From Chloranthus sessilifolius (Eukaryota > Streptophyta > Magnoliopsida > Chloranthales > Chloranthaceae), in the NCBI GenBank assembly GCA_021018995.1, contig CM037588.1, forward strand, positions 141,977,725 through 142,041,724: 64,000 nucleotides of DNA, read 5' to 3'. Positions 31,987-61,075 of the stretch are shown in pieces (positions within the stretch are counted from its first letter, which is position 1; each line of letters starts with the position of its first letter). A program made the translations under genes and the position numbers. The notes below the pieces were generated by a model that saw only the letters and a program-made list of their open reading frames with translations, was not told the origin of the DNA and ran no database searches.

Positions 31987-32003
31987 AAGAATCATTCATC
32001 AGA

Positions 32004-33165: not shown

Positions 33166-33242
33166 CCTTTTCGAAGTGTTTGATCCACTTTAAATAGAGT
33201 CAAAGTTTCCCAGCCACAGAGGTGTTTCAACTCGAAAATTTA

Positions 33243-33666: not shown

Positions 33667-33678
33667 CACCCCAAACCT
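33667..33678 (-). promoter_or_regulatory. Polypurine tract of element E
   Basis: Complement reads aggtttggggtg, abutting the LTR start TGATGAG, the same form as in element A. Confidence 0.85.
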
Positions 33679-34948: not shown

Positions 34949-35033
34949 CCTTGATAACCGAGCTCTGGTAAGATAGAATCAGCGGGCCATGAGAAATGTG
35001 TGTAAGAGTTAATGGAAAGTGAACCTAAGGGTG

Positions 35034-35043
35034 AATATAAAGG
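35034..35043 (-). promoter_or_regulatory. Putative promoter of the E accessory ORF
   Basis: Minus strand tttatattca, with ctataattttt close upstream, lies about 90 bp before the ATG at 34948 and about 170 bp after the palindrome array. Confidence 0.4.
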
Positions 35044-35211
35044 GAAAAATTATAGAGTTGGAGTAGGAGTGGAAAGAGGTGTCCCACAAAAAGAAGAAAC
35101 AATAAAAAGTGTGCTTTACACTAAAGGGATCCCAAGGACGAAAAAGTAAAACAATAAAAATAATATAAAAAAAACAAAGAAGAATCCAATAGGATTCTGT
35201 TCCGAAAAGTG

Positions 35212-35310
35212 GGGTCGATTAATCGACCCTGGGAAGTCGATGCATCGACCCTTGGGGGATCGATTAATCGACTATGGGGTCGATTAAAGCAAAAAATTTC
35301 AATCGATTGA
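35212..35310. repeat. Internal palindrome array of element E
   Basis: gggtcgattaatcgaccc (35212-35229, perfect), gtcgatgcatcgac (35236-35249, perfect), atcgattaatcgac (about 35259) and ggtcgatta further on. It is the same motif as in the E LTR, in a mostly non-coding AT-rich context. Confidence 0.88.
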
Positions 35311-35319
35311 CACAAGCGC

Positions 35320-35325
35320 ACAAAA

Positions 35326-35356
<31 letters not shown>

Positions 35357-36870: not shown

Positions 36871-36871
36871 C

Positions 36872-36889
36872 TCCCCGGCAACGGCGCCA
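36872..36889 (-). promoter_or_regulatory. Primer-binding site of element E
   Basis: Complement is TGGCGCCGTTGCCGGGGA, the full tRNA-Asp-type site of Athila/Tat elements. Confidence 0.92.
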
Positions 36890-36898
36890 AAAACTTGG

Positions 36899-37544: not shown

Positions 37545-37984
37545 TGTAATAGCCCGAAAAATCATGCTAAACTATGACCTCGAGATCCGTGCCCAATCGG
37601 TCACAAGTTTGACCAATTAGGAGTTCGATAGTTAGCGTAGAGTGTGATGAGTGAATGAGATGAGATGGTTTATGAAACCATGTCCTGTGTGTTGTGAATC
37701 TGAAGTCACATACACCTATTGAGGTGCATGTGCTCAACACACAAGCTGGGGGGGGATAAAAGGGTTTAATAATCCTAAAATCAATAGTTTGGTTGTTGAG
37801 AGAGAAGTAAAGAAGAGAGAGAGAGGAGTAAAGAGGGTGATTAAGCAAGAAGTTATTGTGGGTGATTGGAAGGGGGATTCAAGTATTAAAGAGGCCGATT
37901 CTGCACAAAGAATCCGTTCAAGCCAAAGCTGGAACCCTAGCCTTCCAACCATTTGATTTGAAATCAATTTGAAATTGATTCAAG

Positions 37985-39576
37985 GTAAATTTTTGTGAAT
38001 AAAATGCATAGATTGTAGAGGTTAGATTGTAGTTGAAAATGGTTTAAATCATAGGAAAATGGTTTAGAAAAATAGAGGAAAAAGTGTGGAAAAAGATGGA
38101 GAAGAATAGCCAAAAGGGGGCTGAATCTGACAATTTCGATTAATCGAAATTGGGTTTCGATTAATCGAAATTGGCCAAGAAGTTGAAAAGTCAGTGGACC
38201 CCGATTTCGATTAATCGAATTGGAGTTCGATTAATCGACTTTGGATTTCGATTAATCGATTTGGGTATCGATTAATCGACTGGGAACCTCCAGTGGACCC
38301 CAGGGGCTGGAGGAAATGACTTGTAGAAAATCGACTAATCGAAATGGGATTTCGATTAATCGATTTCAATTTTCGATTAATCGATTTGGGATCGATTAAT
38401 CAATTTTAGGAACTCGATTACTCGAATTGAGAATCGACTTGGCTGAACAGAGAATTTCGATTAATCGAATTAGGATTCGATTAATCGATTTGAGAATCGA
38501 TTAATCGATATTGACTTTCGATTAATCGATTTTGGAGTTCGATTAATCGACTGAGATAAATTATGTTAACTTTTGAGTTTGACTTTAAGATCCTTGGAGG
38601 GTCTTAGACCTTCTTTATTGCATCCTTAGTGATGTGTTTCACATGTTATGTGGTACCATAGGTGGTACGAGTGAGCTAGTGCACAAGGAGCCACGTGGGA
38701 CCTTGATGCGTTGATCAAACAAAGACTTGAGGTAGGGAACACCTTGAACATGTACTTTATTTTACAAGAGCATGTATGTAGTGATATAGAATTCAATTCA
38801 AATGTTTTATTGCTTAAGAATTGTGAAAAGAGTGTGTGTGTGTGACATCCATAAGAGTAATTATAATGAGCCATCCCCAGGGGATGATAAAGTGAAGAGA
38901 TAAGGGCATCAGGTGTGATGCAAGTAAATGGATACATCCCAGGGATGTATCCAAGATTGAATCATGTTTGATAGGGCCTAACTGATATAAGATAGCACAC
39001 TTACACGGTGAATAACTATATGTAAGGCACCGATATTTTTGTTATTTGAGGTTTGATAGGGTACCCCACCGACGTGGCGGGATATCCACGACTGACACGG
39101 CAGGATATCCGTGACCGATACGGCGGCGAAACCGTAAGCCAGTGCGGAGGCTTATCCGTACATAGTAAGCACACCCCAGGGGTGTTGATTTGAGACAAGT
39201 GAAACCCCGCCACCAATCCCCAGGGGAAAGGGGCTTGGGTACTATATGGTATTCCCAGGGAATACGTTAAAAGTGTCTATATAGATGACGATGAAGGGTA
39301 TCTCATCGGGGCTCGATGCTATATTGCTCGGGGATTACTTAAGTTGAAAGTTTAAGTTTTGCTTTAGGCCTTTTCAGCATCATTCATGAGTAAATAAAAG
39401 CCACGAGTAAACTACCAGTAAAATGTAATACTTTTTAACTGTTTTATCAGTAATTGCATAGACACATCATGCATGTCATATCATGGAATATATGCGAGTA
39501 ATAATTTATATGTTCAACTGTGTTTTGTTCCCTATTGAGCTAGGATGTAGCTCACCCTATAGACTATACGTCGCAG
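37985..39576 (+). other. Likely leader intron in the F LTR
   Basis: Donor attcaag|gtaaat and acceptor ctatacgtcgcag|gtcc. It contains the whole palindrome array and leaves the primer site in the exon. The homologous acceptor context occurs in D. Confidence 0.5.
38137..38555. repeat. TTCGATTAATCGAA array in the F 5' LTR
   Basis: About 16 copies of the palindrome CGATTAATCG with short variable spacers. The 3' LTR has about 17 (48714-49156), one extra unit having been gained or lost. Confidence 0.93.
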
Positions 39577-40038
39577 GTCCACTACTAGCAGCGGCCGAGG
39601 CTTCAGGAGACGCTGACCCCGGTGAGTCGGACCTTGCGGCCGGCGACGAGTTGGAGCCACCTCCTGAGGACTTCTTCTAGAGGACTCCGTTGTGCCACTT
39701 TGAGGGCTTTTTGAGAGAGATTTGTACGGCTTGGTATGTGAAGCCTTGTTTTTTTGTTTAAACCATGTACATATTGAGTTAGGATTATTCTTTTGGGACG
39801 AACCATCCGTGATGATTGCTATCATCGATGGTTCGGATCGGTTCTCCATTCATGCAGAGGCATGAGGGTAGAACTGTCTTTTGGAGAATTACTTAATATA
39901 AATTTAAATTTCGCAGCTCCTTTATTAATTCATTTTATGCTTGATATGCCAATGTTCCGTGCTTAGCTAAGGGGCACGGTCAAGATGATCATGCTAATGG
40001 CACGGGTTTCAGGGTGCCGAAATCCGGGCTGTCACAGT

Positions 40039-40052
40039 TGGTATCAAAGCCA
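40039..40052 (+). promoter_or_regulatory. Primer-binding site of element F
   Basis: TGGTATCAAAGCCA two bases after the LTR end; tRNA-Met type. Confidence 0.9.
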
Positions 40053-40140
40053 TTTTCTTTTAGCAATTCTGACAATCGTCCTTTTGGTCAGAACATAGGG
40101 GCTTCTGCTAACGAAACTTTAGTTTCAAATACAGCCGCAA

Positions 40141-41499
40141 ATGTCATCTAGAGGAAGAGGCCGACCAAGGGGAGGCCAATAGAGGAGTCTACGTAGTGGA
40201 GATGATTACATCTCTCCTACTAATAGAGTGCCTTTAGGAGGTACTGAGGCCCCAGGGGGCAGTAGTAGTAGACAGCATAATGAAGAGGATCAAGATCGGC
40301 AGGATCAAGATCTAAGAGAACAAGAGAGAGTGAGAGAACGACAAGAAGACAGAGAAGAGCGACAAAGGATGATGCACACTATGGAGACTATGGCAGCTGC
40401 CATGGCACAATAAGCCGCATCCTTTGCAGCTCATGCGTCAAGAGAACAGTAGCCACCTACACCACCAGGGACTCACGGCCTGTGCCCTCATCTTTTACAG
40501 AGTTTAGGAGGATGAGACCTCCTTCATTTTCTGGGCAGGCAGACACCATGGCCGCTAAGAACTGGCTGATGGAGATGGAGAAAGTCTTTAGCGTGCTAAC
40601 ATGCACGGAAGATGAGAGTGTGAGATGGGCAGCTTATATGTTGGATGGGGAGGCTGGGCCTTGGTGGAAGTCCGTGACTCTGACTCGAGGCTCAGACCTG
40701 AGTTGCCTTGGACTTGGGAGGAGTTTGTTGAGGAGTTCAACAAACAATATTTTCCGGAAGTGGTGAGGAACCAGCTTGAGATACAATTTTTACAGTTAGT
40801 GCAAGGGAGAATGACAGTGAGAGAATATGGGGTGGAGTTTCTACGACTTGCCCATTTTGCTCCGGATTACGTCGCTACTGAAGTGATGAAGTCCAAGAGG
40901 TTTCAGCAAGGTTTGAAGCCTGAGGTTAGGGGAGGCGTAGCTCCATTTCAGTTAAGGACCTATGAAGAGGTCATGAGTAAAGCACTAGTGGTTGAAGAGG
41001 AGAATACAAATAGATATAGACAGAGAGAGCAGCAGAGAGGAGGAAATGAACAAGGAAGGATGGGGGCCTACGAACCGGTGAACAAAAAGCCGAGGTTCGT
41101 AGCCCAAAATCAGAAACCACAGTTCCAAGGGGGTTTCGGAAGACCGGTGCAACAACAACACCAACAAAAGTTTCCATTACTTGCGTCAGGGAGACCTTTT
41201 CGCTATGAGAGCCCTGCCATGTTCATCGCCACTATCACACGTGGTTCTCGTCTTTTTTCTTCGCACCTCGGAGACTTGCGTAAGTGTGGCAAGCCTCATA
41301 GGATGGATTGTAGATTGGGAACTAGGGGCTGTTTCGATGTGGCAAGGTGGGCCACTTGATCAAGGATTACCCAGACGGATAAGAGAAAGACGGTTTGATT
41401 CTGGCATACCACCCATTCAAGCAAGGAAGCCGATCGTCCAGGGGAGAGCCTATGCAGTCACTGCTCAGGAAGCAGGGAACGTGCATGACGTCATCCAAG
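40141..41499 (+). pseudogene. gag: gag of element F, degenerate
   Basis: ATG at 40141 gives MSSRGRGRPRGGQ, then a TAG. The Arg/Glu/Gln-rich coil (REQERVRERQEDREERQRM) follows at 40228-40413. The capsid part is split between two frames: RRMRPPSFSGQADTMAAKNWLMEMEKVF, then PWTWEEFVEEFNKQYFPEVVRNQLEIQFLQL and RFQQGLKPEVR. The zinc knuckle is broken by a shift after GCF near 41330-41345. The last exon part reads RAYAVTAQEAGNVHDVIQ, a canonical Tekay end of Gag before protease. Two stops and at least two shifts prevent a full product. Confidence 0.9.
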
Positions 41500-41674
41500 G
41501 TGAGACTCGTTAAAAAAAAAAATTAAAGAAAATTTTCCATTTCATTAGAATTTTAGATAGAGAAGGAGCATGCATTAGGAATTGTATAGATTCTTTCTCA
41601 ATACAAAAAGCTGTATGTGAATTAAGAGTGTAAATTGATGTGTAAATTATTGTATGTATGTATGTATGTTATAG
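41500..41674 (+). other. Putative gag-protease intron of element F
   Basis: catccaag|gtgaga ... tgttatag|gtactt, 175 bp, T-rich 3' part. Splicing joins VIQ to G in phase 1 and continues TLNIYEKG into protease. Retention ends four codons later at TAA (about 41511), giving Gag alone. It is at the same codon as the D intron, though the lengths and sequences differ. Confidence 0.78.
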
Positions 41675-42000
41675 GTACTTTAAATATATATGAAAAAGGA
41701 TGCTTCGGTGGATATGACGCTCGAGTGTTGATAGACCCAGGGTCTATCCACTCATTCGTCACTCCACGTTTCGCCAAGAAGATGAAGATTGTTCCAGAGA
41801 CGTTGGATTTTGTCCTATCTGTGTCTATTCCGACTGGAGAGTTAGTAGACACGGAGTTAGCTTGCAAATCCATCATTGTAGCAGTTCGAGACTTAGAGGT
41901 GCATGAATTGGAAGCAAAGTTGATACTGTTAGACATGCAGGGGTTTGATGTGATCCTTGGCATGGACTGGTTGGCGACATTGTGCAAACCGATTGCAAGA
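41675..42000 (+). pseudogene. pro: Protease of element F
   Basis: Exon 2 reads GCFGGYDARVLIDPGSIHSFVTPRFAKKMKIVPETLDF and ends [22 protein letters not shown] is an accepted active-site variant in plant chromoviruses. About 100 residues, typical length. The frame then ends at 42009; a +1 frame (41957-43576) carries on as the link to RT, so one frameshift near 41980-42010 separates protease and RT. Confidence 0.88.
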
Positions 42001-43576
42001 ACAAGATAGTCATTTCGGACCCAAAACAAGAAGATCATTTCGGTTTCAAGGAGTGAGGTCGTCATCGTACCCGATCTCAGCAGTAAGGGCCGAGAAAATG
42101 ATCAGAAAGGGTTGCAGTGGATACTTAGCTTTCTTAAAGGAGGACAAGGAAGAAAAGAACGTCATTTCTGAGATAGCAGTTGTTCGAGACTTCGCCGACG
42201 TGTTTCCAGAAGAATTGCCTGGATTACCTCCAGAGAGAGAAGTAGAATTTGCCATTGACTTAGCACCAGGAACGGAGCCTATTTCGAAAGCACCTTATAG
42301 AATGGCTCCTGCTGAGTTAAAGGAGTTGAAGGAACAACTACAAGAACTTATGGACAAGGGGTTTGTTAGACCGAGCGTGTCTCCATGGGGAGCACCGGTT
42401 TTGTTTGTCAAGAAGAAAGATGGGTCAATGCGACTATGCATTGACTATCGACAATTGAACAAACTCACTGTGAAGAACCGTTACCCTTTGCCTAGAATCG
42501 ACGATCTATTCGACCAACTGCAAGGAGCAAGGTATTTTTCCAAGATCGACCTGAGATCTGGGTATCATCAGTTGCGAGTCAAGGCTGAGGACATTCAGAA
42601 GACAGCTTTCCGGACACGGTATGGACACTATGAATTCCTTGTGATGCCGTTTGGATTGACGAATGCTCCGGCGTCGTTTATGGATCTGATGAACCGAGTG
42701 TTTAAACCACACTTGGACTCCTGCGTCGTAGTGTTTGTTGATGATATATTGATATACTCCAAATCCAAGACGGAACACGAAGAACATTTGAGGATTGCTC
42801 TACAGACGCTACGTGAACACCAATTGTACGCCAAACTCAGCAAGTGTGAGTTTTGGTTGGAAGAAGTTAGCTTTTTGGGACATGTTGTCTCAAAACATGG
42901 TGTCACTGTAGATCCAGCGAAGATAGAAGCAGTGGTTAAATGGGAGCAACCAAAGACAGTGACCGATGTCCGAAGTTTTCTGGGTTTAGCAGGCTATTAT
43001 CGACGTTTCGTCGAGGGGTTTTCAAAGATATCGGGACCTCTCACAAAGCTGACACGAAAAGATTCAAGGTTTGAGTGGAGTGAGGCATGCGAGAAGAGTT
43101 TTCAAGAACTCAAAACGAGACTCACTTCGGCTCCAGTGCTAGCGATTCCTTCAGGCAGTGGAGGATGCGCCGTGTACAGCGACGCGTCATACAATGGCCT
43201 TGGTTGTATACTCAACCAACACAAGAAGGTGATAGCTTACGGATCAAGACAACTAAAAGAACACGAGAAAAATTACCCGACTCATGACTTGGAACTAGCA
43301 GCAGTCATTTTTGCGCTGAAGATTTGGAGACATTACTTGTATGGTGAGACTTTTGAAATTTTCACCGATCATAAGAGCCTCCGATACCTGTTTACACAGA
43401 AAGAGCTCAACATGAGACAACGCAGGTGGATGGAATTCCTCAAGGATTACGATTGCTCCATACAATACCATCCAGGCAAGGCGAATGTAGTAGCCGACGC
43501 ATTGAGTCGGAAATTTCAAAGGTTTGATTTTGGGTATGCACCGATGGAAATTATTGGAAGACCTGACATTCTATGA
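41957..43576 (+). CDS. RT: Reverse transcriptase-RNase H of element F
   Basis: One 539-codon frame. It has a linker [24 protein letters not shown], then RT with [73 protein letters not shown] and [13 protein letters not shown] (catalytic FVDD). The connection is [33 protein letters not shown]. RNase H has [47 protein letters not shown] and VADALSRK, so the acidic residues Asp, Glu and Asp are present. It is the most intact enzyme of the window and could fold. It is separated from integrase by a frameshift near 43530. It belongs to the Tekay (Del) clade by overall wording. Confidence 0.93.
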
Positions 43577-45071
43577 TGCGAACATTGAGTCAAAAGCCAC
43601 CGGATCCTTTTTGGCTAACATATCAGTAAAGCCAGTGATATTTGAGCATATCCACGATCTACAAATGAATGATCCGGCATTGACAAAGATTCATCAAGAC
43701 GTGAAGGAAGGCATTAGGTCGGACTTCTCGGTTAAAGAAGATGGTTCTTTATTATTCAAGGGCCGTCTATGCATTTCGGACAATGCCGATCTAAGACGAA
43801 CGATTCTTGATGAAGCCCATAAGTCAAATTATGCTATCCACCCTGGTAGCACCAAAATGTACCAAGATTTGAAAAAGAACTACTGGTGGAGAGGACTGAA
43901 GCAAGACGTGGCCGAGTACGTGTCACGGTGTTTAACTTGTCAGCAAGTAAAGGTTGATCATAGACATCCTGCTGGACTATTGCAACCTTTACCAATCCCA
44001 AAATGGAAGTGGGAATCGATCTCAATGGACTTCATTGTTGGATTACCCCGTACTGCCAAGAGACACAATGCCATTTGGGTCGTCGTAGACCGATTGACCA
44101 AATCGGCGCACTTTTTATCGTACAATACTACGTATACAGCAGGAAGACTGGCAGACTTATACATGAAAGAGATTGTAAGATTACATGGAATTCCAAGCAG
44201 CATAGTTTCATATCGTGATCCACTATATACATCCAAGTTTTGGAAGAAATTTCAAGAAGGAATGGGAACACGACTAGACTTTAGTTCAGCTTTCCATCCT
44301 CAAACTGATGGGCAGACAGAGCGAGTGAACCAAGTAATAGAAGACATGCTCAGAGCATGCATGCTTGATATGCAAGGATACTGGGATGAGTATCTACCGA
44401 TGTTCGAGTTCGCATACAACAACAGTTTCCAAACAAGCATTGGCATGGCACCGTATGAAGCTCTGTATGGACGACGATGCAAATCACCCCTCAATTGGGA
44501 GGAAACAGGTGAGAAATTTGTGTTAGGGCCAAAACTACTTGAAGACAACGCCACCGTTGTTCAAATTATCAGAGAAAGGCTGAAGTCAGCACAGAGTAGA
44601 CAGAAAAGTTACGCCGACATGAAGCGGACTAGTGTCGACTATAAGGTGGGCGAGCACGTGTTTGTGAAAGTGTCACCTATGAAAGGTGTAATGAGATTTG
44701 GCAAGAGAGGGAAGTTAAGTCCACGTTATGTTGGACCATTTGAAATTTTAGGACGCGTAGGTGAAGTTGCGTATCGCGTTGGTTTACCACCGCTGTTTGA
44801 TCGAGTACATAACGTGTTCCACATATCGATGCTCAGGAAGTACGTGAATGATCCGTCTCATGTATTAGGAAAGCAACCTATAGAGATGTGTGAGGACATG
44901 AGCATGATAGAGGAACTAGTGGAAATCTTGGATCGAAAGGAACAAGTACTGCGCACTAAAGTGATTCCCTTAGTGCTTGTTCGGTGGAACAATCATCCAA
45001 AAGAAGAGGCTACGTGGGAACGAGAGGCCGATGTGAAAGAACAATATCCAGCCGTGTTTCCAACGACGTGA
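43524..45071 (+). CDS. INT: Integrase with chromodomain-like tail of element F, active-site Asp changed
   Basis: A 515-codon frame. The zinc domain has H-H and CLTCQQ; the core has [23 protein letters not shown] (Asp 1), [16 protein letters not shown] and [13 protein letters not shown] (Glu). Relatives, including G and D, have SDRDP in the second position, so the catalytic Asp is Tyr here (gat to tat at 44210-44212). The C-terminal part has [29 protein letters not shown], a GPF module, then a chromodomain-like tail [22 protein letters not shown]. The integrase inserts cDNA into the genome; with Tyr at that position it should be inactive. The frame is otherwise full length and ends at TGA. Confidence 0.93.
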
Positions 45072-45282
45072 GAATTTAATGTAAACCACAAACGTGGTTG
45101 TGGAAATCTCCACGAGACTTGTAATTCAATGGAAGTTGTGATCAAAGTATGATATAACGCACAGATTTATATGTACATGATCAGGTGTATGCAATTCTAT
45201 GGAACTATGAACCACTTGATGTCATAAACTACCAAAAGAAATCAAAGAACCAAAGAACTAGAAAATCTGCGGAAATTGGGCA
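45072..45282 (+). other. Spacer after F integrase
   Basis: No gene. Text starts aaaccacaaacgtggttgtgg, a hairpin-like inverted repeat (accacaaacgtggttgtgg) at about 45084-45102, then runs into the palindrome array. Confidence 0.5.
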
Positions 45283-46070
45283 AAATCGATTAATCGAATT
45301 TCAAATCGATTAATCGATTTGGAATTTCGATTAATCGATTTTGTTCGATTAGTCGACTGGCATGTGCCAGTGACTGGAAAATTTGAATAAGAGTTAGAAT
45401 ATACATAGAATGAAATTTCGATTGATCGAGTTATAATTTCGATTAATCGATCTGGGATCGATTAATCGATTTTGGGAATTCGATTAATCGAATTGGGAAT
45501 TCGATTAATTGAACTGCAAGTTCGATTAATCGAACAAGCTGGAAATGTTAGAAGAATTGGGAGTAAATTAATGAAATTTTGATTAATCGAAGCAGTGTCG
45601 ATTAATCAATTTTGGATTTCGATTAATCAAACTGGACCTCGATTAATCGATTTACTAAAGGGACTTGGAAGAAATTGAAGTCAGATAGATGATTTTGATT
45701 AATCGAACTGAATTTCGATTAATCGATTTTGAAATTTCGATTAATCGAAATGGATTTCGATTAATCGAATAACTTAAGGAATTCTAGAAATTTAGAAGTT
45801 ACTGCACGATTTCGATTAATCGAAGTGAAATTCGATTAATCGATTTTGGAATTTCGATTAATCGAAATGGATTTCGATTAATCGACTGGCTCGCGCCAGT
45901 GAGCTCAAAAACTTAAATTTTTAAACGGATACAATTTTGATTAATCGAAATGTTTTCGATTAATCGAATTTAACTTTCGATTGATCGATTTGGGAAATCG
46001 ATTAATCGATTTTGCGCGGCTTAACCTAGTTTTGAATCTCGATTAATCGATTCTGAATTTCGATTAATCG
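45283..46070. repeat. Internal TCGATTAATCGA array of element F
   Basis: About 26 copies of CGATTAATCG or one-base variants in roughly 790 bp, with short spacers. It ends 11 bp before the TATA box of the accessory ORF. Same motif as the LTR array. Confidence 0.95.
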
Positions 46071-46080
46071 AGCCGGGGCC

Positions 46081-46090
46081 TATATATAAA
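46081..46090 (+). promoter_or_regulatory. TATA box of the F accessory ORF
   Basis: tatatataaa, followed by a 215-bp pyrimidine-rich leader with a splice-donor-like ccacg|gtaaaccct at about 46231. G has the same layout, with tatatatatata in place. Confidence 0.75.
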
Positions 46091-46305
46091 AATTTGAGGA
46101 TTTCATTTCCCATTCGAAATCATTTTTGCTTGGGATTTTGGGTGCTTCATCTTCTTCTTCTTCTCCGACCATCCGGCGCTCTAGGGTTGGGTTTTGCCGT
46201 CGATTCGCTTCCGCAATCGCATCCAAAACCACGGTAAACCCTAAATTTGTGTTTTTCCCTTCAATTTGAGTTAGAGAAACCCTAGTTTAAGCTTATTTCA
46301 CCACC

Positions 46306-47762
46306 ATGCCGCCCAAAACCCGGTTGTCTTCGAAGAAGGCAACCTCTAAGTTGCCGGTCAGGCGTAAGAACGCCGCACCACCACCACCTACCCCATCGCC
46401 GGTGAGGACTCCGTCACCGTCGACATCGGAGACCACCTCCGGTTCGACGAGCGCATCTATGCGTGAGTCTTCCCGCAAGTCCACACCGATGCCCCCACCA
46501 CCCACTAATGTGATACAACCAAATGAATGGTGGAACGCAAAGACCTTTGAGGTCGAATACATTATCGACCCTACCCTATTCACCAATCCCGATGTGCTGG
46601 GCGAGACCCAATGGGCTCGAAACTACCTCAATAACGCCGGTCTCGGCAACCTTCTCAAACCAATCCGGGGTTCTTATTACCCTAGATTGGTGAGATTATT
46701 CTACCATGGGCTTGTGAACGGCCCGACCGACGATGTGATCAAGACCACTATTGAGGGTCGCGACTACACGATCACTCGTCGTCACATACACGAGGTGCTT
46801 AAATGCTACCTCGATTTTACCCCAGAGACCACCCTATTCCCACCCTTTGAGGAGGAACCTCGCTTTGAGGAGGTCATGACTCGCATGACCAACGGCAAGA
46901 AGGGGTCGGGATCCTCCATAAAGAGGGTTGACCTTCCCCACTATATGTGGATGCTTGACTTGGTGGTCAAGTGCAACCTCTACCTTATGCGCCACGATAC
47001 CGAGCGCGTGGAGAAAGTGCAGCAGGCACTTTACTCGGCCTTCTGTGGCCGGTGGTTTGACGCCACCATGCTCATCCTGTAGGGGATGAGGTACATAAAG
47101 GGGAAACTAATGAAGGGCAACCTGCGGCTCAAGGAGAAGATGCCCTATGCTTGCCTTATATCGAACATGCTGGAGTGCTACTCCGACGACCCATCCTACA
47201 CCGTCTCTCCTCACGAGATGAGGGCTACGGACTGTGTGAAGACATTCTCTAGGTCTTCATGGGCCCATAGCTATAACCTACTAAAGTGAACCCTACTGCT
47301 CGGTTCGCCTCAGTAGGCAGTGCAGTAGCACCGCCACCACCCCCACCACCACAGCAGGACCCACCCGTGGGTGGGGCACACCCTGTCCCCTCTGAGCCAT
47401 CCGTGGAGAGGGCTCCCTCTCATACCGCAGCCTCACCGACGCCACCTGCCCACTCCGCGCCCGCGACACCCACCTCGTCCTACCGCCGGCGCGCCGCATC
47501 ATCTGGGCCTACCATAGAGGAGGTGTTGGCCCGTATGGAGGCCAACAACGAAAGGATGAACTGGAGGATGGACTTCCTTCTCTTTCACAAACTCCGCCAC
47601 ATCTACCCGACCGACTACCGCCGCTACCTCGCCCAGGAGGAGTGGACAGCCGGGCGCATAGCCTTCCACAGAGGACCCGTCTTCCATCCTACCACAGCCA
47701 CTACAGACGCGGCTCCTTCCACATCTGCCTCCGCTCCGCCGACTGAGACGCTTCCACCATAG
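46306..47762 (+). pseudogene. Accessory ORF of element F, interrupted by TAG
   Basis: ATG at 46306 gives MPPKTRLSSKKATSK, a basic start, then a Pro/Ser/Thr-rich linker. From about residue 69 follows a folded-looking domain: EWWNAKTFEVEYIIDPTLF, ARNYLNNAGLGNLLKPIRGS, YPRLVRLFYHGLVNG, DYTITRRHIHEVLKC, ALYSAFCGRWFDAT. A TAG at 47080-47082 replaces a codon that is Glu in G; the same frame continues GMRYIKGKLMKGN to a TGA at 47287. A shifted frame then encodes a Pro/Ala-rich stretch and MEANNERMNWRMDFLLFHKLRHIYPTDYRRYL. It resembles the plant domain labelled putative plant transposon protein. No env or transmembrane feature. It has its own TATA box. Confidence 0.8.
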
Positions 47763-48110
47763 TCGCCACCACCGCAGCCAGCCAGCCCCGGCTCGGCCAC
47801 CCATGACCAGAGTGCCGTCACCTCGAGATGGAGCAATGAGTTTTATCTTTCTTTTATATGAGTCATGATTGTATAGATGTATATTTTGTACGCCAACTCA
47901 TGTGGCGCTTTGTATAAATTTTCTGATCTTAATAGAAATCCAAAAAAAAAATTTGTGTACATTGTTCAAATTCGTCAAATTTAAATTCTATGCTAGTATG
48001 TGTAACTAATTTAATGCGTTTGAGTCAACTGGACCGCCTCACCTGAGAGTGTGGGGGGGAGAGACCCACACCGATGAGCCTTGGGTTATTTTCGAGGACG
48101 AAAATTCCCA
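47763..48110 (+). other. 3' untranslated region of the F accessory transcript
   Basis: No gene. Contains gtcatgattgtatagatg and aatagaaatccaaaaaaaa near 47930, a plausible polyadenylation zone, then ggttattttcgaggacgaaaattccc, which is conserved before the 3' LTR in D and G. Confidence 0.5.
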
Positions 48111-48122
48111 AGGTGGGGAGGA
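48111..48122 (+). promoter_or_regulatory. Polypurine tract of element F
   Basis: aggtggggagga directly before TGTAATAGCCC. Confidence 0.92.
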
Positions 48123-50564
48123 TGTAATAGCCCAAAAAATCACGCTAAACTATGACCTCGGGATCCGTGCCCGATCGGTCACAGGTTTGACCAATTAGGA
48201 GTTCGATAGTTAGCGTAGAGTGTGATGAGTGAATGAGATGAGATGGTTTGTGAAACCATGTGGTGTGTGTTGTGAATCTGAAGTCACATACACCTATTGA
48301 GGTGCATGTGCTCAACACACAAGCTGGGGGGGGGGATAAAAGGGTTTAATAACCCTAAAATCAATAGTTTGGTTGTTGAGAGAGAAGTAAAGAAGAGAGA
48401 GAGAGGAGTAAAGAGGGTGATTAAGCAAGAAGTTATTGTGGGTGATTGGAAGGGGGATTCAAGTATTAAAGAGGCCGATTCTGCGCAAAGAATCCGTTCA
48501 AGCCAAAGCTGGAACCCTAGCCTTCCAACCATTTGATTTGAAATCAATTTGAAATTGATTCAAGGTAAATTTTTGTGAATAAAATGCATAGATTGTAGAG
48601 GTTAGATTGTAGTTGAAAATGGTTTAAATCATAGGAAAATGGTTTAGAAAAATAGAGGAAAAAGTGTGGAAAAAGATTGAGAAGAACAGCCAAAAGGGGG
48701 CTGAATCTGACAATTTCGATTAATCGAAATTGGGTTTCGATTAATCGAAATTGGCCAAGAAGTTGAAAAGTCAGTGGACCCCGATTTCGATTAATCGAAT
48801 TGGAGTTCGATTAATCGACTTTGGATTTCGATTAATCGATTTGGGTATCGATTAATCGACTGGGAACCTCCAGTGGACCCCAGGGGCTGGAGGAAATGAC
48901 TTGTAGAAAATCGACTAATCGAAATGGGATTTCGATTAATCGATTTCAATTTTCGATTAATCGATTTGGGATCGATTAATCGATTTTAGGAACTCGATTA
49001 CTCGAATTGAGAATCGACTTGGCTGAACAGAGAATTTCGATTAATCGAATTAGGATTCGATTAATCGAATGAAAATCTCGATTAATCGATTTGAGAATCG
49101 ATTAATCGATATTGACTTTCGATTAATCGATTTTGGAGTTTGATTAATTGACTGAGATAAATTATGTTAACTTTTGAGTTTGACTTTAAGATCCTTGGAG
49201 GGTCTTGGGCCTTCTTTATTGCATCCTTAGTGATGTGTTTCACATGTTATGTGGTACCATAGGTGGTACGAGTGAGCTAGTGCACAAGGAGCCACGTGGG
49301 ACCTTGATGCGTTGATCAAACAAAGACTTGAGGTAGGGAACACCTTGAACATGTACTTTATTTTACAAGAGCATGTATGTAGTGATATAGAATTCAATTC
49401 AAATGTTTTATTGCTTAAGAATTATGAAAAGAGTGTGTGTGTGTGTGACATCCATAAGAGTAATTATAATGAGCCATCCCCAGGGGATGATAAAGTGAAG
49501 AGATAAGGGCATCAGGTGTGATGCAAGTGAATGGATACATCCCAGGGATGTATCCAAGATTGAATCATGTTTGATAGGGCCTAACTGATATAAGATAGCA
49601 CACTTACACGGTGAATAACTATATGTAAGGCACCGATATTTTTGTTATTTGAGGTTTGACAGGGTACCCCACCGACGTGGCGGAATATCCACGACTGACA
49701 ATGGCGAGGATATCCATTGAACACCCGAGTGTTGATTTGAGACAAGTGAAACCCCGCCACCAATCCCCAGGGGAAAGGGGCTTGGGTACTATATGGTATT
49801 CCCAAGGAATACGTTAAAAGTGTCTATATAGATGACGATGAAGGGTATCTCATCGGGGCTCGATGCTATATTGCTCGGGGATTACTTAAGTTGAAAGTTT
49901 AAGTTTTGCTTTAGGCCTTTTCAGCATCATTCATGAGTAAATAAAAGCCACGAGTAAACTACCAATAAAATGTAATACTTTTTAACTGTTTTATCAGTAA
50001 TTGCATAGACACATCATGCATGTCATATCATGGAATATATGTGAGTAATAATTTATATGTTCAACTGTGTTTTGTTCCCTATTGAGCTAGGATGTAGCTC
50101 ACCCTATAGACTATACGTCGCAGGTCCACTACTAGCAGCGGCCGAGGCTTCAGGAGACGCTGACCCCGGTGAGTCGGACCTTGGCCACCTCCTGAGGACT
50201 TCTTCTAGAGGACTCCGTTGTGCCACTTTGAGGGCTTTTTGAGAGAGATTTGTACGGCTTGGTATGTCAAGCCTTGTTTTTTTGTTTAAACCATGTACAT
50301 ATTGAGTTGGGATTATTCTTTTGGGACGAACCATCCGTGATGATTGCTATCATCGATGGTTCGGATCGGTTCTCCATTCATGCAGAGGCATGAGGGTAGA
50401 ACTGTCTTTTGGAGAATTACTTAATATAGATTTAAATTCTGCAGCTCCTTTATTAATTCATTTTATGCTTGATATGCCAATGTTCCGTGCTTAGCTAAGG
50501 GGCACGGTCAAGATGATCGTGCTGATGGCACGGGTTTCGGGGTGTCGAAATCCGGGCTGTCACA
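48123..50564 (+). mobile_element. 3' LTR of element F
   Basis: Matches 37545-40036. Differences are concentrated in GC-rich spots: about 70 bp are missing near 49690-49730 (compare 39090-39180) and about 20 bp near 50180 (compare 39629-39655); one array unit is added near 49070. Confidence 0.95.
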
Positions 50565-51560: not shown

Positions 51561-51621
51561 AGAAGCCACCTGCGAACGAGAGTCAGATATACGTGATGCA
51601 TATCCACATCTTTTTGAGTGA
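51561..51621 (+). pseudogene. INT: Last codons of D pol (chromodomain-like tail)
   Basis: After the agaag duplication the frame resumes with ATCERESDIRDAYPHLFE and a TGA at 51619-51621, matching [19 protein letters not shown] of F. This proves that the sequences on both sides of the 19.5-kb insert belong to one element. Confidence 0.92.
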
Positions 51622-51768
51622 TTAAGATTGTATGTACATACGCTTTCAATGGTGTGAATGACTGACTATGTTTTCTTCATTGTTCTTCATCGTCCAATTG
51701 CTTACTTTGTTGTTAAAGAGTCACATCGTCAATTTTTGAGGACGAAAATTTTATTAAGTAGGGGAGGA
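51622..51768 (+). other. D 3' spacer and polypurine tract
   Basis: No accessory ORF lies here, unlike in F and G. It ends ttgaggacgaaaattttattaagtaggggagga, with the polypurine tract aggggagga at 51760-51768. Confidence 0.8.
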
Positions 51769-52071
51769 TGTAATGACCCAAAATTTAGAACCCAAAAATT
51801 TTGACACTTCAAGCAACAACGGTTACGAGATTTAAAATTTGAAACTAATTGGGCGTGATTTGGACTCCATTTGAGCCATTTGGGTAAGTTTGTACACAAG
51901 GATTGGGGTGTACTCTCTTTGTGCCAAGGTTAAGTGCACTTGGGGATAAACTTGTAAATAAGAATGAACACGTTAATACGGCGTGTTTGCTTAACACACA
52001 CACTAATCTTGTGGATAAGTGAATAGGAATGAGTATTTTAGTTTGGTGTGTGTGCTTGTGACTTACTACTT
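51769..52071 (+). mobile_element. 3' LTR of element D, first part
   Basis: Starts TGTAATGACCCAAAATTTAG. The text gcttaacacacacactaatcttgtggataag at about 51990-52020 parallels the F LTR (gctcaacacacaagctgg...gataaaag). It stops where element C begins; the rest lies beyond the window. Confidence 0.85.
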
Positions 52072-55669: not shown

Positions 55670-58371
55670 TGTGACAGCCCGGATTTCGGCACCCCGAAAC
55701 CCGTGCCATCAGCACGATCATCTTGACCGTGCCCCTTAGCTAAGCACGGAACACTGGTATATCAAGCATTGCAATAAAATAATAAACGAAATTGCGGAAT
55801 TTGAATCTATATTAATTAACTCTCAGAAAGACAGTTCTACCCTCATGCCTCTGCATGAATGGAGAACCGATCCGGACCATCGATGATAGCAATCATCACG
55901 GATGGTTCGTCCCAAAAGAATAATCCAAAACCCCATATACATGGTTTTAAACAAGATCAAGGCTTGACATACCAAGCCGTACAAAATCTCTCCAAGAACT
56001 CTCAAAGTGGCACAACGGAGTCCTCTGGAGGTGGCTCCAACTCTTCGCCGGCCGCAAGGTCCGATTCATGGGATCGGCGTCTCCACGAAGCCATGACAAG
56101 CTGCTAGTAGTGGACCTGCGACGTATAGTCTATAGGGTGAGCTACATCCTAGCTCAATAGGGAACAAACACAGTTTGAACATATAAATTATAACTCACAT
56201 GTATTCCATGATATGCCATGCATGATGTATCTATCGATTGTTAATGAAAGCAGTTAAAAGCATTTCGTTTCTTGTTGATTACTTATAGTTTCATTTACTC
56301 ATGAATGATCTTTGAAAAGGCCTAAAGCAAAACTTAAACTTTCAACTTAAGTAATCCCCGAGCAATATAGCATCGAGCCCCGATGAGATACCCTTCATCG
56401 TCATCTATATAGACAGTTTCAATGTATTCCCTGGGAATACCATATAGTACCCAAGCCCCTTTCCCCTGGGGATTGGTGGCGGGGTTTCACTTGTCTCAAT
56501 CAACACCCCTGGGGTGTGCTTACTATGTACGGATAAGCCTCCGCACTGGCCTACGGTTTCGCCGCCGTATCGGTCACGGATATCCTGCCGTGTCAGTCGT
56601 GGATATCCCGCCACGTCGGTGGGGTAACCTATCAAACCTCAAATAACAAAAATATCGGTGCCTTACATATAGTTATTCACCGTGTAAGTGTGGTATCTTA
56701 TATCAGTTAGGCCCTATCAAACATGATTCAATCTTTGGATACATCCACAGGATGTATCCATTTACTACATCACACGATGCTCTTATCTCTTACTTCTTCA
56801 TCCCACAGGGATGGCTCATTAGTTACTCTGATGAATATCACACACTCACTTTTCACAATTTCTTAAGCAGTAAAAATATTTGAATGGAAATTTATATCAC
56901 TACATACATGCTCTTGTAAAATAAGGTACATGTTCAAGGTGTTCCCTACCTCAAGTCTTCACTTGATCAATGCATCAAGGTCCCACGTGACTCCTTGTGC
57001 ACCAGTCCACACGTACCACCTATGGTACCACATAACAATTAAAACACATAAGGATGCAATAAGGAAGGCATAAGATCCCCAAGAATCTTAAAGTCAAACC
57101 AAAAGTCAACATAGTTTACTACGATTCGATTAATGAATTCCAAAATCGATTAATCGAATGTCGATTAATCGATTTCCAAAATCGATTAATGAAGTCAATA
57201 TCGATTAATCGAAGCAATTTGATTAATCGAAATTCTCCTTCCATAAAGTCCATTCTCGATTCGAGCGATTCGAGTTTTCATTAGATTAATGAATCCAATT
57301 TGATTAATCGAAATTCCTCTTCGCCAAAGCAAAATTCTTTTATTGAGCGATTCGAGTTTTCATTCGATTAATCGAATCTAATTTGATTAATCGAAATCCT
57401 TCTTCATAAAGCAAATTTCTTTGTTGAGCGATCGAGTTTTCATTCGATTAATGAATCCAATTTGATTAATCGAAATCCTTCTTCGCATAAAGTAGACCCA
57501 TTGAATAATCGAATTTCACAAGGTGATTAATCGATTCCAAATCGATTAATCGAAACAAATCGATTAATCGAAATCCCATTTCGATTAGTCGATTTTCCTT
57601 AAGTCATTCCTCCAACCACAGGGTCCTTTGGAGAGTTCTCGATCGATTCGATTCCCAAATCGATTAATCGAAATCAAAAAATCGATTAATCAATCCAGAT
57701 TCGATTAATCGGAAATCGAACTCTCATCGTTCAACTTCCTGGCCAATTTCGATTAATCGAAACCCTATTTCGATTAATCGAAATTGTCAGATTCAGCCCC
57801 TTTCGAGCTGTTCTTCCCAATCTTTTTTCCATACCTTTTTCCTCTATTTTTCTAAGCCATTATTCTATGATTTAACCCACATTTAACTGCAACTTAACCC
57901 TATAATCTATGCATCTTATTTACAAAATTTTACCTTGAATAGATCTCAAGTTGATTTCAAATCTAGGGTTGGAAGGCTAGGGTTCGACTTTGGTTTCTAA
58001 GTTCCTTGCGTTGAATCAGCCTCTTTAATGCTTGAATCCTTCTTCCAATCACCCACAATAACTCTTGCTTGATCACCCTCTTTACTCCTCTCTCTCTCTT
58101 CTTTACTCCTCTCTCAACAACTCAAAACTCTTGATTTTAGGGTTATTAACTCTTTTTATCCTCTTCCTCACTTGTGTGTTGAGCACATACACCGCGGTAG
58201 GTGTATGCGACTATACCTTCACCACACACATCACATAGGCATTCTATTTATCACATCTCATCCGTTCATCACACTACTTACTAACTGTTGGACTTCCATT
58301 TGGTCAAACCTATGACCGATCGGGCACGGATCCCGAGGTCATAGTTTAGTGTGATTTTTCGGGTTATTACA
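55670..58371 (-). mobile_element. 3' LTR of element G
   Basis: Complement begins TGTAATAACCCG (58371) and ends CGGGCTGTCACA (55670). It includes a TCGATTAATCGA array at about 57120-57785, with larger, partly regular units (attcgattaatgaatccaatttgattaatcg) at 57240-57480. About 2.7 kb, slightly longer than in F because of the array. Confidence 0.93.
57120..57785. repeat. TCGATTAATCGA array in the G LTR
   Basis: More than twenty copies, several with the central cg lost (ttaatgaa). A higher-order unit of about 75-80 bp, starting with gagcgattcgagtttt, repeats near 57260, 57340 and 57420. Confidence 0.9.
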
Positions 58372-58682: not shown

Positions 58683-60177
58683 GGTCAAATCTTGGTAGTG
58701 GGTCTGCTTGGGGCTGGCTCACAGGCTGCGGTGGGGCGCAGTGCTGGTTCGGCGTCTCGATCTGAGCGAGATGTGGAAATGGAAGGAGCAGCGTGCGTGG
58801 TGGGATGGAAGACGGGTCCTCTATGGAAGGCGATCGTCCGGTCCACTCCTCCTCTGGCGAGGTAGCGGTGGTAGTCCGTCGGGTAAATGTAGCGGAGGGT
58901 GTGGAACATCAAGAAGTCCATCCTCGGTTCATCCTCTCGTTGTTGGCTTCCATCTGAGCCAACACGTCCTCGATGGTAGGACGGATGGAGGCCGCCGGCG
59001 TAGGTTGAGGTGGGTGTCGCGGGCGCGGAGTGTGCAGGTGGTGTCGGTGAGGCTATGGTGTGGGAGGGAACCCTCTCCGCGGATGGCTCTACTGCGGCAG
59101 GGTGTGCCCCACCCACTCGTGGGTCATCTTTGAGTGGTGGGGGTGGTGGCGGTGCTCTGCTGCGCCTCTTTGGCGGGGCCGGGACCCGGGCTGGTAGGGT
59201 CGCTTTAGGAGGTTATAGCTACGGGTCCATGAAGACTTTGTAAACGTCTTCACGCGATCCGTAGCCCTCACCTCGTGAGGCGAGATGGTGTAGGATGGCT
59301 CGTTGGAGTAGCACTCCAACATGCTCGATATAAGACGAGCATAGGGCATCTTCTCCTTGGGCCGCATGTTGCCCTTCATTAATTTGCCCTTGATGTACCT
59401 CATCCCTTCTAGGATGACCTTGGTAGCATCAAACCATCGGCCACAGAAGGCCGCGTAAAGTGCATGTTGCACTTTGTCGACGCGCTCAGTGTCGTGGCGC
59501 ATCGGGTAAAGGTTGCATTTGATTATGGAGTCGAGCATCCACATGTAGGGTGGAAGATCAACCCTCTTGATGGAAGTGCCCGACCCCTTCTTCCCGTTTG
59601 TCATGCGGGTCATGACTTCCTCAAATCGAGGGTCCTCCTCGAAGGGTGGAAATAGGGTAGTCTCGGGGGTGAACTCGAGGTAGCACTCGAGCACCTCGTG
59701 GATGTGGTGGCGGGTGATCGTATAAAGACGACCCTCGATCTTGGTTATGATAGAGTCGTCGGTAGGGCCATTGGTTAGCCCTTGGTAGAATAATCTCACC
59801 AATCTAGGGTAGTAGGAACCCCGGATTGGTTTGAGTAGGTTGCCGAGGCCGGCATTGTTTATGTAGTTTTGAGCCCATTGGGTCTCGCCCGGTACATCGG
59901 GATCGGTGAAAAGGGTAGGGTCGATGGTATATTCGACCTCAAAGGTCTTGGCAGCCCACCACTCGTTTGGTTGCTCCACGTTGGTGGGTGGTGGTGGCAT
60001 GGGGGTTGATTCTGGAAGACTCACAGCGTGAGCCTTTCGTCGAACGGAGGTGGTCTCCGATTCCGACGGTGATGGAGTCCTCACCAACGATGGGGTAGGT
60101 GGTGGTGGGTGCGGCGTTCTTCGCCTAACCTTAACGAGGTTGCCTTCTTTGAAGACAATCGGGTTTTGGGCGGCATA
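58683..60177 (-). pseudogene. Accessory ORF of element G
   Basis: The homologous start is ATG at 60177 (MPPKTRLSSK), but a small indel then shifts the frame; the open frame 60225-59089 runs through the whole domain without the TAG seen in F. Motifs: EWWAAKTFEVEYTIDPTLF, YINNAGLGNLLKPIRGS, YPRLVRLFYQGL, YTITRHHIHEVLECYLEF, MLDSIIKCNLYPMRHDTERVD, ALYAAFCGRWFDATKVILEGMRYIKGKLMKGN, ISSMLECYSNEPSY. A second frame (59116-58685) holds the Pro/Ala-rich part and RMDFLMFHTLRYIYPTDYHRYL. About 480 codons in all. A TATA box lies at 60404-60392, and a splice-donor-like aag|gtaaaccc lies near 60240. Function unknown; the conserved domain and own promoter suggest a real product in relatives. Confidence 0.8.
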
Positions 60178-60412: not shown

Positions 60413-61075
60413 CTCGATTAATCGAAATTCTGTTTCGATTAATCGAAATTTAAAACTAGGTTAAACCGCGTAAAATCGATTAATCGATTTCCAAAATCGA
60501 TTAATCGAAAGTCAAATTCGATTAATCGAAACAATTTCGATTAATCGAAATAAATCTATCTGTTTAAAATTTTAAAATTTTGAGCTCACTGGCGCGAGCC
60601 AGTCGATTAATCGAAATCCATTTCGATTAATCGAAATTCCAAAATCGATTAATCGAATTTAGTTTCGATTAATCGAAATCGGGCTATAACTTCTAAATTT
60701 CCAGAATTTCTTAAATTTTTCGAGTAATCGAATCCATTTCGATTAATCGAAATTTCAAAATCGATTAATCGAAATCCACTTCGATTAATCGAAATCATCC
60801 ATCTGATTTCAAATTTTTGTAAGTCCCTTTAGTAAATAGATTAATCGAAATATAATTCGATTAATCAAATTTTCAAAATCGATTAGTCGATTCCAAATCG
60901 ATTAATCGAGATTCCAATTCGATCAATCGAAATTGGTCTTCTATGTATAATCTCACTCTCCTTTCAATTTCCAGTCACTGACACATGTCAGTCGACTAAT
61001 CGAACAAAATCGATTAATCGAAATTCCAAATCGATTAATCGATTTGAAATTCGATTAATCGGTTTTGCCCAGTTT
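60413..61075. repeat. Internal TCGATTAATCGA array of element G
   Basis: About 23 copies of CGATTAATCG and close variants. Several spacers match those of F in order (for example the gagctcactggcgcgagccagtcg region near 60590), showing common descent. Confidence 0.95.

What the first reader, a model, noticed from the sequence alone, without database searches (positions are those of the whole stretch)
37545..50564. Matching palindrome arrays in the F LTRs and directly upstream of an internal promoter and accessory ORF
In F the palindrome CGATTAATCG occurs about 16-17 times in each LTR and about 26 times at 45283-46070. The internal array ends 11 bp before a TATA box that leads into an ORF not needed for retrotransposition. 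G repeats this layout on the other strand. Two promoters of one element sharing a dense symmetric motif suggests a dimeric DNA-binding factor, possibly the accessory protein, that regulates both. The known parallel is VANDAL DNA transposons, whose VANC proteins bind short motifs in the element and counter silencing. For a Ty3/gypsy element I know of no described equivalent, but I could not search the literature.
Basis: partly seen in the sequence, partly recalled or inferred. Interest (0 to 1): 0.88.

Follow-up and report, generated by a model that had tools for sequence, protein, structure and literature searches.

The report
Matched palindrome arrays in plant retrotransposons
A family of plant jumping genes carries dense copies of one short mirror-symmetric DNA word both in its end repeats and right in front of the promoter of an extra gene, and a sister family in the same genome does the same with a different word and a strongly diverged extra protein, which suggests a private switch in which each family makes a protein that reads its own word.

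Summary
The unit is the 12-bp palindrome TCGATTAATCGA; F has 16 copies in each LTR and 28 internally, and G repeats the layout. One correction: the internal array ends 9 bp before a TATA box, but the LTR array lies about 380 bp downstream of the best LTR TATA word, past a conserved splice-donor-like site.

New evidence from the rest of the genome: a sister chromovirus clade (E'; RT 79-83% identical to F over its main stretches) has the same layout with another palindrome (CTCGCGCGAG) and an accessory protein only 29-36% identical. Nine E' elements carry their word in both LTR and accessory promoter, and none of these sites has the F word. Of 14 F-type LTRs, 14 have the F word and none the E' unit; three F-type promoters have 14-17 F words and 0-1 E' units. 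A third accessory gene has a third palindrome, again 9 bp before its TATA.

Best explanation: clade-specific operator arrays read by a dimeric factor, probably the accessory protein, which is under purifying selection. Binding is untested. The layout is already described for Ty1/copia Sireviruses, and motif/protein co-divergence for VANC: a new Ty3/gypsy variant of a known kind.

The parts
37545..40036 (+). F 5' LTR
   Evidence: 94.6% identical to 48123-50564; TSD TAAAT on both sides of F
37754..37761 (+). conserved LTR TATA-like GGATAAAA, offset 210
   Evidence: present in F5, F3 and G, 380-382 bp before the array
37786..37984 (+). putative ATG-free leader exon (199 nt) ending at a CAAG|GTAAA donor-like site
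   Evidence: 0 ATG in F5, F3 and G; donor-like site in all three; F-G identity 0.92-0.98 in windows at offsets 238-296. Transcription start and splicing are inferred
38137..38549 (.). palindrome array in F 5' LTR, 16 copies
43536..45071 (+). F integrase with chromodomain (Ty3/gypsy chromovirus)
   Evidence: Pfam H2C2, SH3_Tf2-1; Chromo E 4.1e-5 at 23.8 bits, just under the curated cut-off of 25.1
45287..46070 (.). internal palindrome array of F, 28 copies
45886..45901 (+). second shared box CTGG-N6-CCAGTG (exact also at 45357-45372, LTR copies 38280-38295 and 48860-48875, and G 60587-60602 on -)
   Evidence: five places, 10 matches with <=1 mismatch on both strands, shuffle mean 1.78, 0 of 100 shuffles reach 10
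46081..46089 (+). internal TATA box (TATATATAA), 9 bp after the last 12-mer
46306..47082 (+). accessory ORF of F, first open part (premature TAG at its end)
   Evidence: Pfam Transposase_32 PF20167 E 1.7e-6, 28.5 bits, below the cut-off of 45
47286..47762 (+). open part in the C-terminal region of the F accessory gene
   Evidence: resemblance to the G C-terminal pieces seen by eye
48123..50564 (+). F 3' LTR
48717..49129 (.). palindrome array in F 3' LTR, 16 copies
55670..58371 (-). G LTR (the one in the window)
   Evidence: 78-87% identical to F LTR in the aligned pieces
57147..57780 (.). palindrome array in G LTR, 17 copies, with unit-scale expansions relative to F
59089..60000 (-). accessory ORF of G, open part
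   Evidence: Transposase_32 E 8.7e-10, 39.2 bits (cut-off 45); dN/dS against F 0.127
60415..61061 (.). internal palindrome array of G, 23 copies, ending 9 bp before TATATATA
35215..35271 (-). three palindromes (two TCGATTAATCGA, one TCGATGCATCGA; starts 22 and 23 bp apart) in element D, which has an Athila/Tat-type PBS by recall; 174 bp before a TATA-like word and upstream of a 120-aa ORF (34589-34948, -) without a Pfam match
51561..52060 (+). element E: pol end, linker and first ~280 bp of LTR (bounds by eye), no accessory ORF and no array
24158..25130 (+). diverged relative of the accessory protein (29%, E 9e-7) with no palindrome array in the 858 bp upstream

Best explanation
The arrays are operator clusters of a family-private regulatory circuit in a chromovirus (Ty3/gypsy). 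Each clade has its own palindrome, placed at two sites: (i) immediately upstream of the TATA box of an accessory gene between pol and the 3' LTR, with the last copy ending 8-9 bp before the TATA, and (ii) in the LTR, just past a leader splice-donor-like site and, in the F family, about 380 bp downstream of the LTR TATA word. A sequence-specific, probably homodimeric factor reads the palindrome at both sites. The likeliest factor is the element's own accessory protein (Transposase_32-like), which would regulate its own promoter and act on the LTRs of its family, either as transcription factor or as VANC-like anti-silencing factor. Shown: the arrays, their geometry, clade-specific matching of the two sites, signs of selection on motif and ORF. 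Inferred: protein binding, dimerisation, direction and chromatin effect.
For: (1) Density and specificity; genome-wide 56,855 matches of CGATTAATCG-N11-CGATTAATCG against 0 for the pattern read backwards.

(2) Constraint on the word: F-G identity in motif 97% (230 sites) against spacer 86% (413 sites) in the internal array, 3 of 783 circular shifts reach it; LTR 85-93% against 71-72%.

(3) Clade matching: 14 of 14 F-type LTRs (three of the window and 11 fetched because they hold the array, some partial) have 8-19 F words and 0 E' units; three F-type accessory promoters have 14-17 F words and 0-1 E' units; 25 of 25 E'-clade accessory promoters have 2-4 E' units (<=3 mismatches in 13) and 1 of 25 has a single F word. 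E' LTRs: 2 of 2 of the first element (5 and 7 units) and 8 of 8 of further elements, fetched at the place predicted from their accessory gene (3-7 units), with 0 F words; in 17 control pieces the most was 1, 3 in all.

(4) Proteins, F to E': RT 79% and 83% over its two long stretches (50% over a short one), integrase 72% over residues 56-508 (56% over 1-62), accessory 36% and 29%.

(5) Geometry: gap from last palindrome to TATA 9 bp in F, G, L009 and the T locus and 8-9 bp in 21 of 25 E' promoters.

(6) A third accessory gene (T, 29%) has TCAATCGATTGA: 11 copies with <=1 mismatch; in the unguided test its best 8-bp palindrome (TCAATTGA, one mismatch allowed) counts 13, and 0 of 100 shuffles reach that.

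(7) Accessory dN/dS 0.127, bootstrap 0.08-0.18, against 0.25 for the integrase frame (blocks overlap slightly).

(8) 0 of 33 deviant copies among 90 carry a compensatory double change, as expected for a DNA site rather than a hairpin.
Against: No binding data, and no confident fold of the accessory protein (pLDDT 36 and 37), so a DNA-binding domain is not shown. There are only two well-sampled clades plus one or two single loci, and copies within a clade are related by descent, not independent events. The LTR array is not adjacent to the LTR TATA word. One F-family copy (C1 18961-30044) has LTR arrays and an accessory ORF 87% identical but no internal array. Small arrays of the F word lie before TATA-like words in element D (ORF without Pfam match) and in L022 (no accessory relative found in that stretch). 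A diverged accessory-like ORF in the window (24158-25130) has no array upstream. L023 has a mixed set of words, with its TATA-like word farther away. For the E' promoter of L011 alone the unguided palindrome test is weak (6 of 100 shuffles reach it), and for the E' 3' LTR L026 it finds nothing; the E' case rests on the 13-bp unit, which I defined from the first E' element. The CpG-decay test for protection from methylation was inconclusive (p = 0.23).
Confidence: 0.55

Rival explanations
1. The arrays bind host transcription factors (for example homeodomain- or GARP-like dimers, recalled and untested) that each clade has recruited for its LTR and accessory promoter; the accessory protein has another role.
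For: TCGATTAATCGA copies also occur in element D, which has another type of PBS, upstream of a TATA-like word and an ORF without Pfam match. Small arrays lie outside F-type LTRs in L022 and L023, and in L022 no accessory relative was found. Bousios et al. 2010 discuss nuclear factors for the Sirevirus motifs (section 19).
Against: F and E' live in the same nucleus with the same host factors, yet both sites differ together between them, in step with the accessory protein. The L023 element, which ends in a D-like LTR, also has its own accessory relative, so D-type arrays are not clearly free of an accessory gene.
Confidence: 0.3
2. The arrays act as RNA: in the genomic transcript the palindromes fold into hairpins that serve packaging or translation, or are merely siRNA hot-spots.
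For: Strong predicted RNA folding: z -11.4 for the LTR array (0 of 100 shuffles) and -14.4 for the internal array (0 of 20). Palindrome clusters of maize Sirevirus LTRs attract small RNAs (passages).
Against: Any dense palindrome folds. 0 of 33 deviant copies show a compensatory change, and the five flanking pairs tested are not complementary beyond chance. The tight 8-9 bp gap to TATA is a DNA geometry.
Confidence: 0.08
3. Neutral tandem-repeat turnover: short palindromic minisatellites spread by slippage and gene conversion between LTR and internal region, without function.
For: Unit-scale indels between the two F LTRs and expansions in G; arrays differ in copy number between copies.
Against: Motif better conserved than spacers; with the motif masked no significant spacer similarity remains between LTR and internal array (best E 4.1); near-constant distance to TATA across three palindromes; accessory ORF conserved.
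Confidence: 0.07

Closest known systems
Repeated motifs (RM) of Sireviruses, Ty1/copia (Bousios et al. 2010, PMC2829016; passages, sections 9, 10, 19)
   Same: Element-specific palindromes in high copy number in the LTR and again upstream of an extra gene (ENV); the four listed elements without ENV lack the internal copies; CpG-rich clusters.
   Different: Other superfamily (copia). Core CGG-CCG in all but one listed element, not TCGATTAATCGA. There the TATA box follows the LTR CpG island by 37 bp on average; here the LTR array is about 380 bp downstream of the TATA word. Extra gene is ENV, here Transposase_32-like. No matched divergence of motif and protein between sister clades is reported in what I read.
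VANC / VANDAL anti-silencing (PMC5735166, PMC10398659; passages)
   Same: TE-encoded protein with family-specific short motif accumulated in non-coding repeats of its own family; related proteins have different motifs; turnover by tandem repeats.
   Different: VANDAL DNA transposons; motif YAGTATTAY is arrayed in one orientation and is not a palindrome; binding and demethylation are shown there, nothing is shown here.
Plastic 5' CpG islands in Del LTRs (PMC4029996; passages)
   Same: Variable CpG-rich stretch in the 5' half of a long LTR of Ty3/gypsy Del elements.
   Different: In the passages it is described by composition, without palindromes or accessory gene; they say that the no-island pattern was predominant in the cluster that holds all eudicot elements.
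Accessory genes of plant LTR elements: Grande gene23 with its own promoter (PMC7264820; passages, section 8), Transposase_32 ORF of sunflower Athila (PMC11728184; passages), TRP28 of Retand (PMC11963269; passages)
   Same: Extra ORF between pol and 3' LTR; own promoter (Grande); nuclear or DNA-binding role suspected; tandem repeats nearby in Retand.
   Different: Grande and Retand ORFs are antisense; no palindrome shared between LTR and ORF promoter in the passages read.

Membership tests
Ty3/gypsy chromovirus | RT before integrase and chromodomain at the integrase C-terminus | tested here: met
   RT 41957-43576, integrase 43536-45071, Chromo domain E 4.1e-5 (23.8 bits, cut-off 25.1)
Ty3/gypsy chromovirus | Assignment to the Tekay/Del lineage | not tested
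   inferred only from LTRs of about 2.5 kb
Sirevirus RM system | Ty1/copia Sirevirus backbone | tested here: not met
   gypsy domain order
Sirevirus RM system | high-copy palindrome in LTR plus copies upstream of an extra gene | tested here: met
Sirevirus RM system | CGG-CCG core | tested here: not met
   TCGATTAATCGA, CTCGCGCGAG, TCAATCGATTGA
Sirevirus RM system | LTR cluster a short distance upstream of the LTR TATA | tested here: not met
   380-382 bp downstream of TATA1, or 693-733 bp upstream of a second TATA-like word
Sirevirus RM system | clusters form CpG islands | tested here: inconclusive
   CpG o/e 2.39-3.41 in arrays against 0.42-0.82 elsewhere, but G+C only 0.30-0.37
VANC-type anti-silencing | TE-encoded protein related to VANC | tested here: inconclusive
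   Pfam finds Transposase_32 as the best match, below its curated cut-off; no VANC reference sequence was compared
VANC-type anti-silencing | family-specific motif accumulated in non-coding regions, differing between related families with related proteins | tested here: met
VANC-type anti-silencing | protein binds the motif | not testable with these tools
   needs EMSA or DAP-seq
VANC-type anti-silencing | loss of DNA methylation on its targets | not testable with these tools
   CpG decay between F LTRs, an indirect sign, was inconclusive: array 3 of 34, rest 10 of 53 changed, p 0.23

The most novel reading that the evidence does not exclude
Plant chromoviruses encode a family of sequence-specific regulators (Transposase_32-like accessory proteins), each bound to a private palindrome that it shares between its own promoter and the LTRs of its family. 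When the protein diverges, both arrays are rewritten. This would be a VANC-like self-activating or anti-silencing circuit in LTR retrotransposons, explaining what one class of plant additional ORFs is for and how one family came to leave tens of thousands of paired words in one genome.
Probability: 0.42. Interest if true: 0.88.

Novelty: new variant of a known kind. Interest (0 to 1): 0.74.

Why it matters
[quoted passage not shown] Here two sister clades in one genome give a natural swap experiment: related pol, different accessory protein, different palindrome, same two positions. That makes the question directly testable with two proteins and two oligonucleotides.

Tried and rejected
Helical phasing of the whole array: rejected, long spacings are not in phase. 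LTR array as a plain copy of the internal array: no significant spacer similarity left after masking the motif, though a second box CTGG-N6-CCAGTG is shared. Hairpin selection: no compensatory changes. Methylation footprint by CpG decay: inconclusive. Structure prediction of the accessory protein: two jobs, pLDDT 36 and 37, not used for fold searches. Protein database: the G accessory protein found none of 361 candidates at E <= 1e-3, the F+G alignment none of 7,993 at E <= 1, although plant pol proteins are there. Viral contigs: no relative; one chance pattern match, L001. PDB sequences: best E 0.39, not meaningful. Rfam: none at gathering score in 37000-64000. The sigma-70 scan is not meaningful for a plant. 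Literature searches; the 10-base word is in five papers whose titles have nothing to do with retrotransposons (listing only). T-clade LTR: not found in L027 or L028; T words also cluster in L016 and L017 outside the promoter, unassigned. I had taken element E as a control for 'no accessory, no array'; only about 280 bp of its LTR is visible, so this is unresolved, and a genome search for it did not complete.


Full report
OBSERVATION. The palindrome is there as described. CGATTAATCG occurs 75 times in the window where a Markov-1 model gives 0.15 on average. It is confined to five dense arrays in F and G plus a pair in element D. With one mismatch allowed, F has 16 copies in each LTR and 28 between pol and the accessory ORF; G has 17 in its LTR and 23 in the internal array; F gag-pol and the F accessory region have none. 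Aligning the copies shows that the unit is 12 bp, TCGATTAATCGA. Of 86 consecutive spacings, 59 are 19-22 bp; the 20 long ones are not in helical phase. The arrays are CpG-rich: o/e 2.39-3.41 against 0.42-0.82 in other parts of F and in the window as a whole, though their G+C is only 0.30-0.37.

ANATOMY. F is a chromovirus: RT, then integrase with a chromodomain. Its LTRs differ at 44 of 2,417 aligned sites and it is flanked by the duplication TAAAT. Between pol and the 3' LTR come the internal array, a TATA box 9 bp after the last 12-mer, and the accessory ORF, which matches Pfam Transposase_32 weakly (F E 1.7e-6, G E 8.7e-10, both below the curated cut-off). Both copies in the window are broken: F has a premature stop at 47080, and the G frame is broken near its N-terminus. 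Between the two copies the sequence nevertheless shows purifying selection: dN/dS 0.127 over 265 codons (bootstrap 0.08-0.18) against 0.25 for the integrase frame. In the LTR, F5, F3 and G share a GGATAAAA word, an ATG-free stretch of 196-199 nt and a CAAG|GTAAA site, and the array begins 380-382 bp after the TATA word. In 11 further F-type LTRs from contig C1 a TATA word of this kind is recognised in 7, 358-385 bp before the array, and the donor-like site in 10, 129-154 bp before it. A second TATA-like word lies 693-733 bp after the array. Transcription start and splicing are inferred from sequence.

CONSTRAINT. Between F and G the motif is 97% identical (230 sites) and the spacer 86% (413 sites) in the internal array; in the LTR arrays 85-93% against 71-72%. 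Moving the motif annotation around the array reaches the observed value in 3 of 783, 3 of 646, 4 of 412, 3 of 412 and 3 of 633 circular shifts. Aligners favour repeated words, so this is supportive, not decisive. Among 90 copies, 33 deviate and none has a complementary double change, which speaks for a DNA site rather than a hairpin, although the arrays as RNA would fold strongly. LTR and internal arrays share a second box, CTGG-N6-CCAGTG, but no other significant spacer similarity.

THE REST OF THE GENOME. The window lies in a 2.17-Gb genome. Two words 21 bp apart occur 56,855 times, the pattern read backwards 0 times. I fetched 20 stretches of 10 kb around the first matches on C1, so this sample was chosen by the array and covers most but not all of the listed places. 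The stretches hold 18 clusters of at least two words (one mismatch): 14 of the 15 clusters with eight or more copies lie in F-type LTRs, one lies in an accessory promoter, and three small clusters lie elsewhere. The G accessory protein has 49,893 first-look candidates in the genome, of which only the best 130 were scored (85-100% identical); rows with and without inner stops occur.

THE NATURAL SWAP. One element in the sample (E', C1 232199 to the 3' LTR at 244512; LTRs 88.6% identical over 1.8 kb) has RT 79% and 83% identical to F over its two long stretches (50% over a short one) and integrase 72% over residues 56-508 (56% over 1-62), but its accessory protein is only 36% and 29% identical over two stretches. 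It has no F word in its LTRs or accessory promoter. Before its accessory TATA, and in both LTRs just past a splice-donor-like AAGGTAAG, it carries CTCGCGCGAG-type palindromes (unit TCGCTCGCGCGAG). A DNA search with its accessory promoter gave 40 places; 25 were read: 5 loci from that call, the query's own among them, and 20 of the other 35, mostly the longer matches. 25 of 25 have two to four units with <=3 mismatches, 21 of 25 with the last unit ending 8-9 bp from the TATA, and 1 of 25 has one F word. For eight of these elements I predicted where the 3' LTR array should be and fetched that place: 8 of 8 match the E' LTR and have 3-7 units and no F word; 17 control pieces of the window have at most 1 and 3 in all. 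Conversely 14 of 14 F-type LTRs have 8-19 F words and no E' unit, and the F, G and L009 accessory promoters have 14-17 F words and 0-1 E' units. Nine E' elements and three F-type elements therefore show the same palindrome at both sites. The unit was defined from the first E' element, and the copies within a clade are related by descent.

FURTHER CLADES. A third accessory relative (T, in L017, 29% identical to G) has 11 copies of TCAATCGATTGA with <=1 mismatch, the last 9 bp before a TATA. A fourth (L023, 35-44% identical to T) has a mixed set of TCGATCGATCGA, TCGATTGATCGA and TCAATCGATTGA; its TATA-like word is farther away and the LTR start that follows resembles that of element D. For T and L023 the LTR match is not established. 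Against a strict link: a relative at window 24158-25130 has no array, small arrays in element D and L022 precede TATA-like words without a detected accessory relative, and one F-type copy has the ORF but no internal array.

MECHANISM. What the data show is a two-site, clade-specific sequence code that differs at both sites together and in step with the accessory protein, in one nucleus. A host factor would have to be swapped at both sites in each clade; an element-encoded reader explains it more simply. In the LTR the array lies within the transcribed leader if the first TATA word is used, where it could act as an intronic enhancer or as an anti-silencing site; VANC target repeats also lie in introns (passages of PMC5735166). 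Which of these applies is open. No usable fold of the protein was obtained.

KNOWN PARALLELS. Bousios et al. 2010 described for Ty1/copia Sireviruses element-specific palindromes in the LTR and, in the nine elements with ENV, again in the linker with ENV, almost all upstream of it; four without ENV lack them (section 9). They could not name a common binding factor (section 19). Del LTRs can have variable CpG islands (passages). Grande gene23 has its own promoter. A Transposase_32 ORF is known in a sunflower Athila element (passages). VANC proteins show motif-protein co-divergence in DNA transposons (passages). The layout itself is therefore not new; a Ty3/gypsy case with matched switching of both arrays and of the accessory protein was not in the listings or passages I saw (searches; subscription papers are mostly missing from that library, and Bousios et al. 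2016 was not held).

VERDICT. Observation confirmed and strengthened; interpretation partly supported; a new variant of a known kind with a clean experimental test.

Noticed in passing
window 33667-36895 (-), with LTRs about 32009-33666 and 36896-37544/50565-51560: Element D, with an Athila/Tat-type primer binding site (recalled; bounds by eye), holds three TCGATNNATCGA palindromes 22-23 bp apart upstream of a TATA-like word and a 120-aa ORF rich in basic residues; F is inserted in its 5' LTR.
   Followed up: partly
window 29226-32006 and 51561-52060: Element E, a chromovirus about 69% identical to F in pol DNA, is split by D; it goes from pol to PPT and LTR with no accessory ORF.
   Followed up: partly
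window 39548-39681 (F 5' LTR): Near a GCAGGT acceptor-like site found in F5, F3 and G the LTR has a short open stretch ending in EPPPEDFF-stop (read by eye); together with the upstream donor-like site this suggests a leader intron containing the palindrome array.
   Followed up: no
window 47942-47951: A run of ten A follows the F accessory region, reminiscent of a poly(A) remnant; G lacks it at the corresponding place.
   Followed up: no
G000:C1:18961-30044 (L006, L007): A shorter F-type copy in which integrase matches only to residue 271 and is followed within about 140 bp by the accessory ORF, without internal array: looks like a deletion derivative.
   Followed up: no
window 38930-39349 (F LTR) and the corresponding part of the G LTR: In 60-bp windows F5 and G are 95-100% identical over about 400 bp, against 88% over the LTR outside the array, suggesting gene conversion or an unknown conserved function.
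   Followed up: no
L016 and L017 (C1 2519001-2539000): TCAATCGATTGA copies, many in pairs 22 bp apart, occur in several clusters outside the T accessory promoter; they may mark the LTRs of that family.
   Followed up: partly
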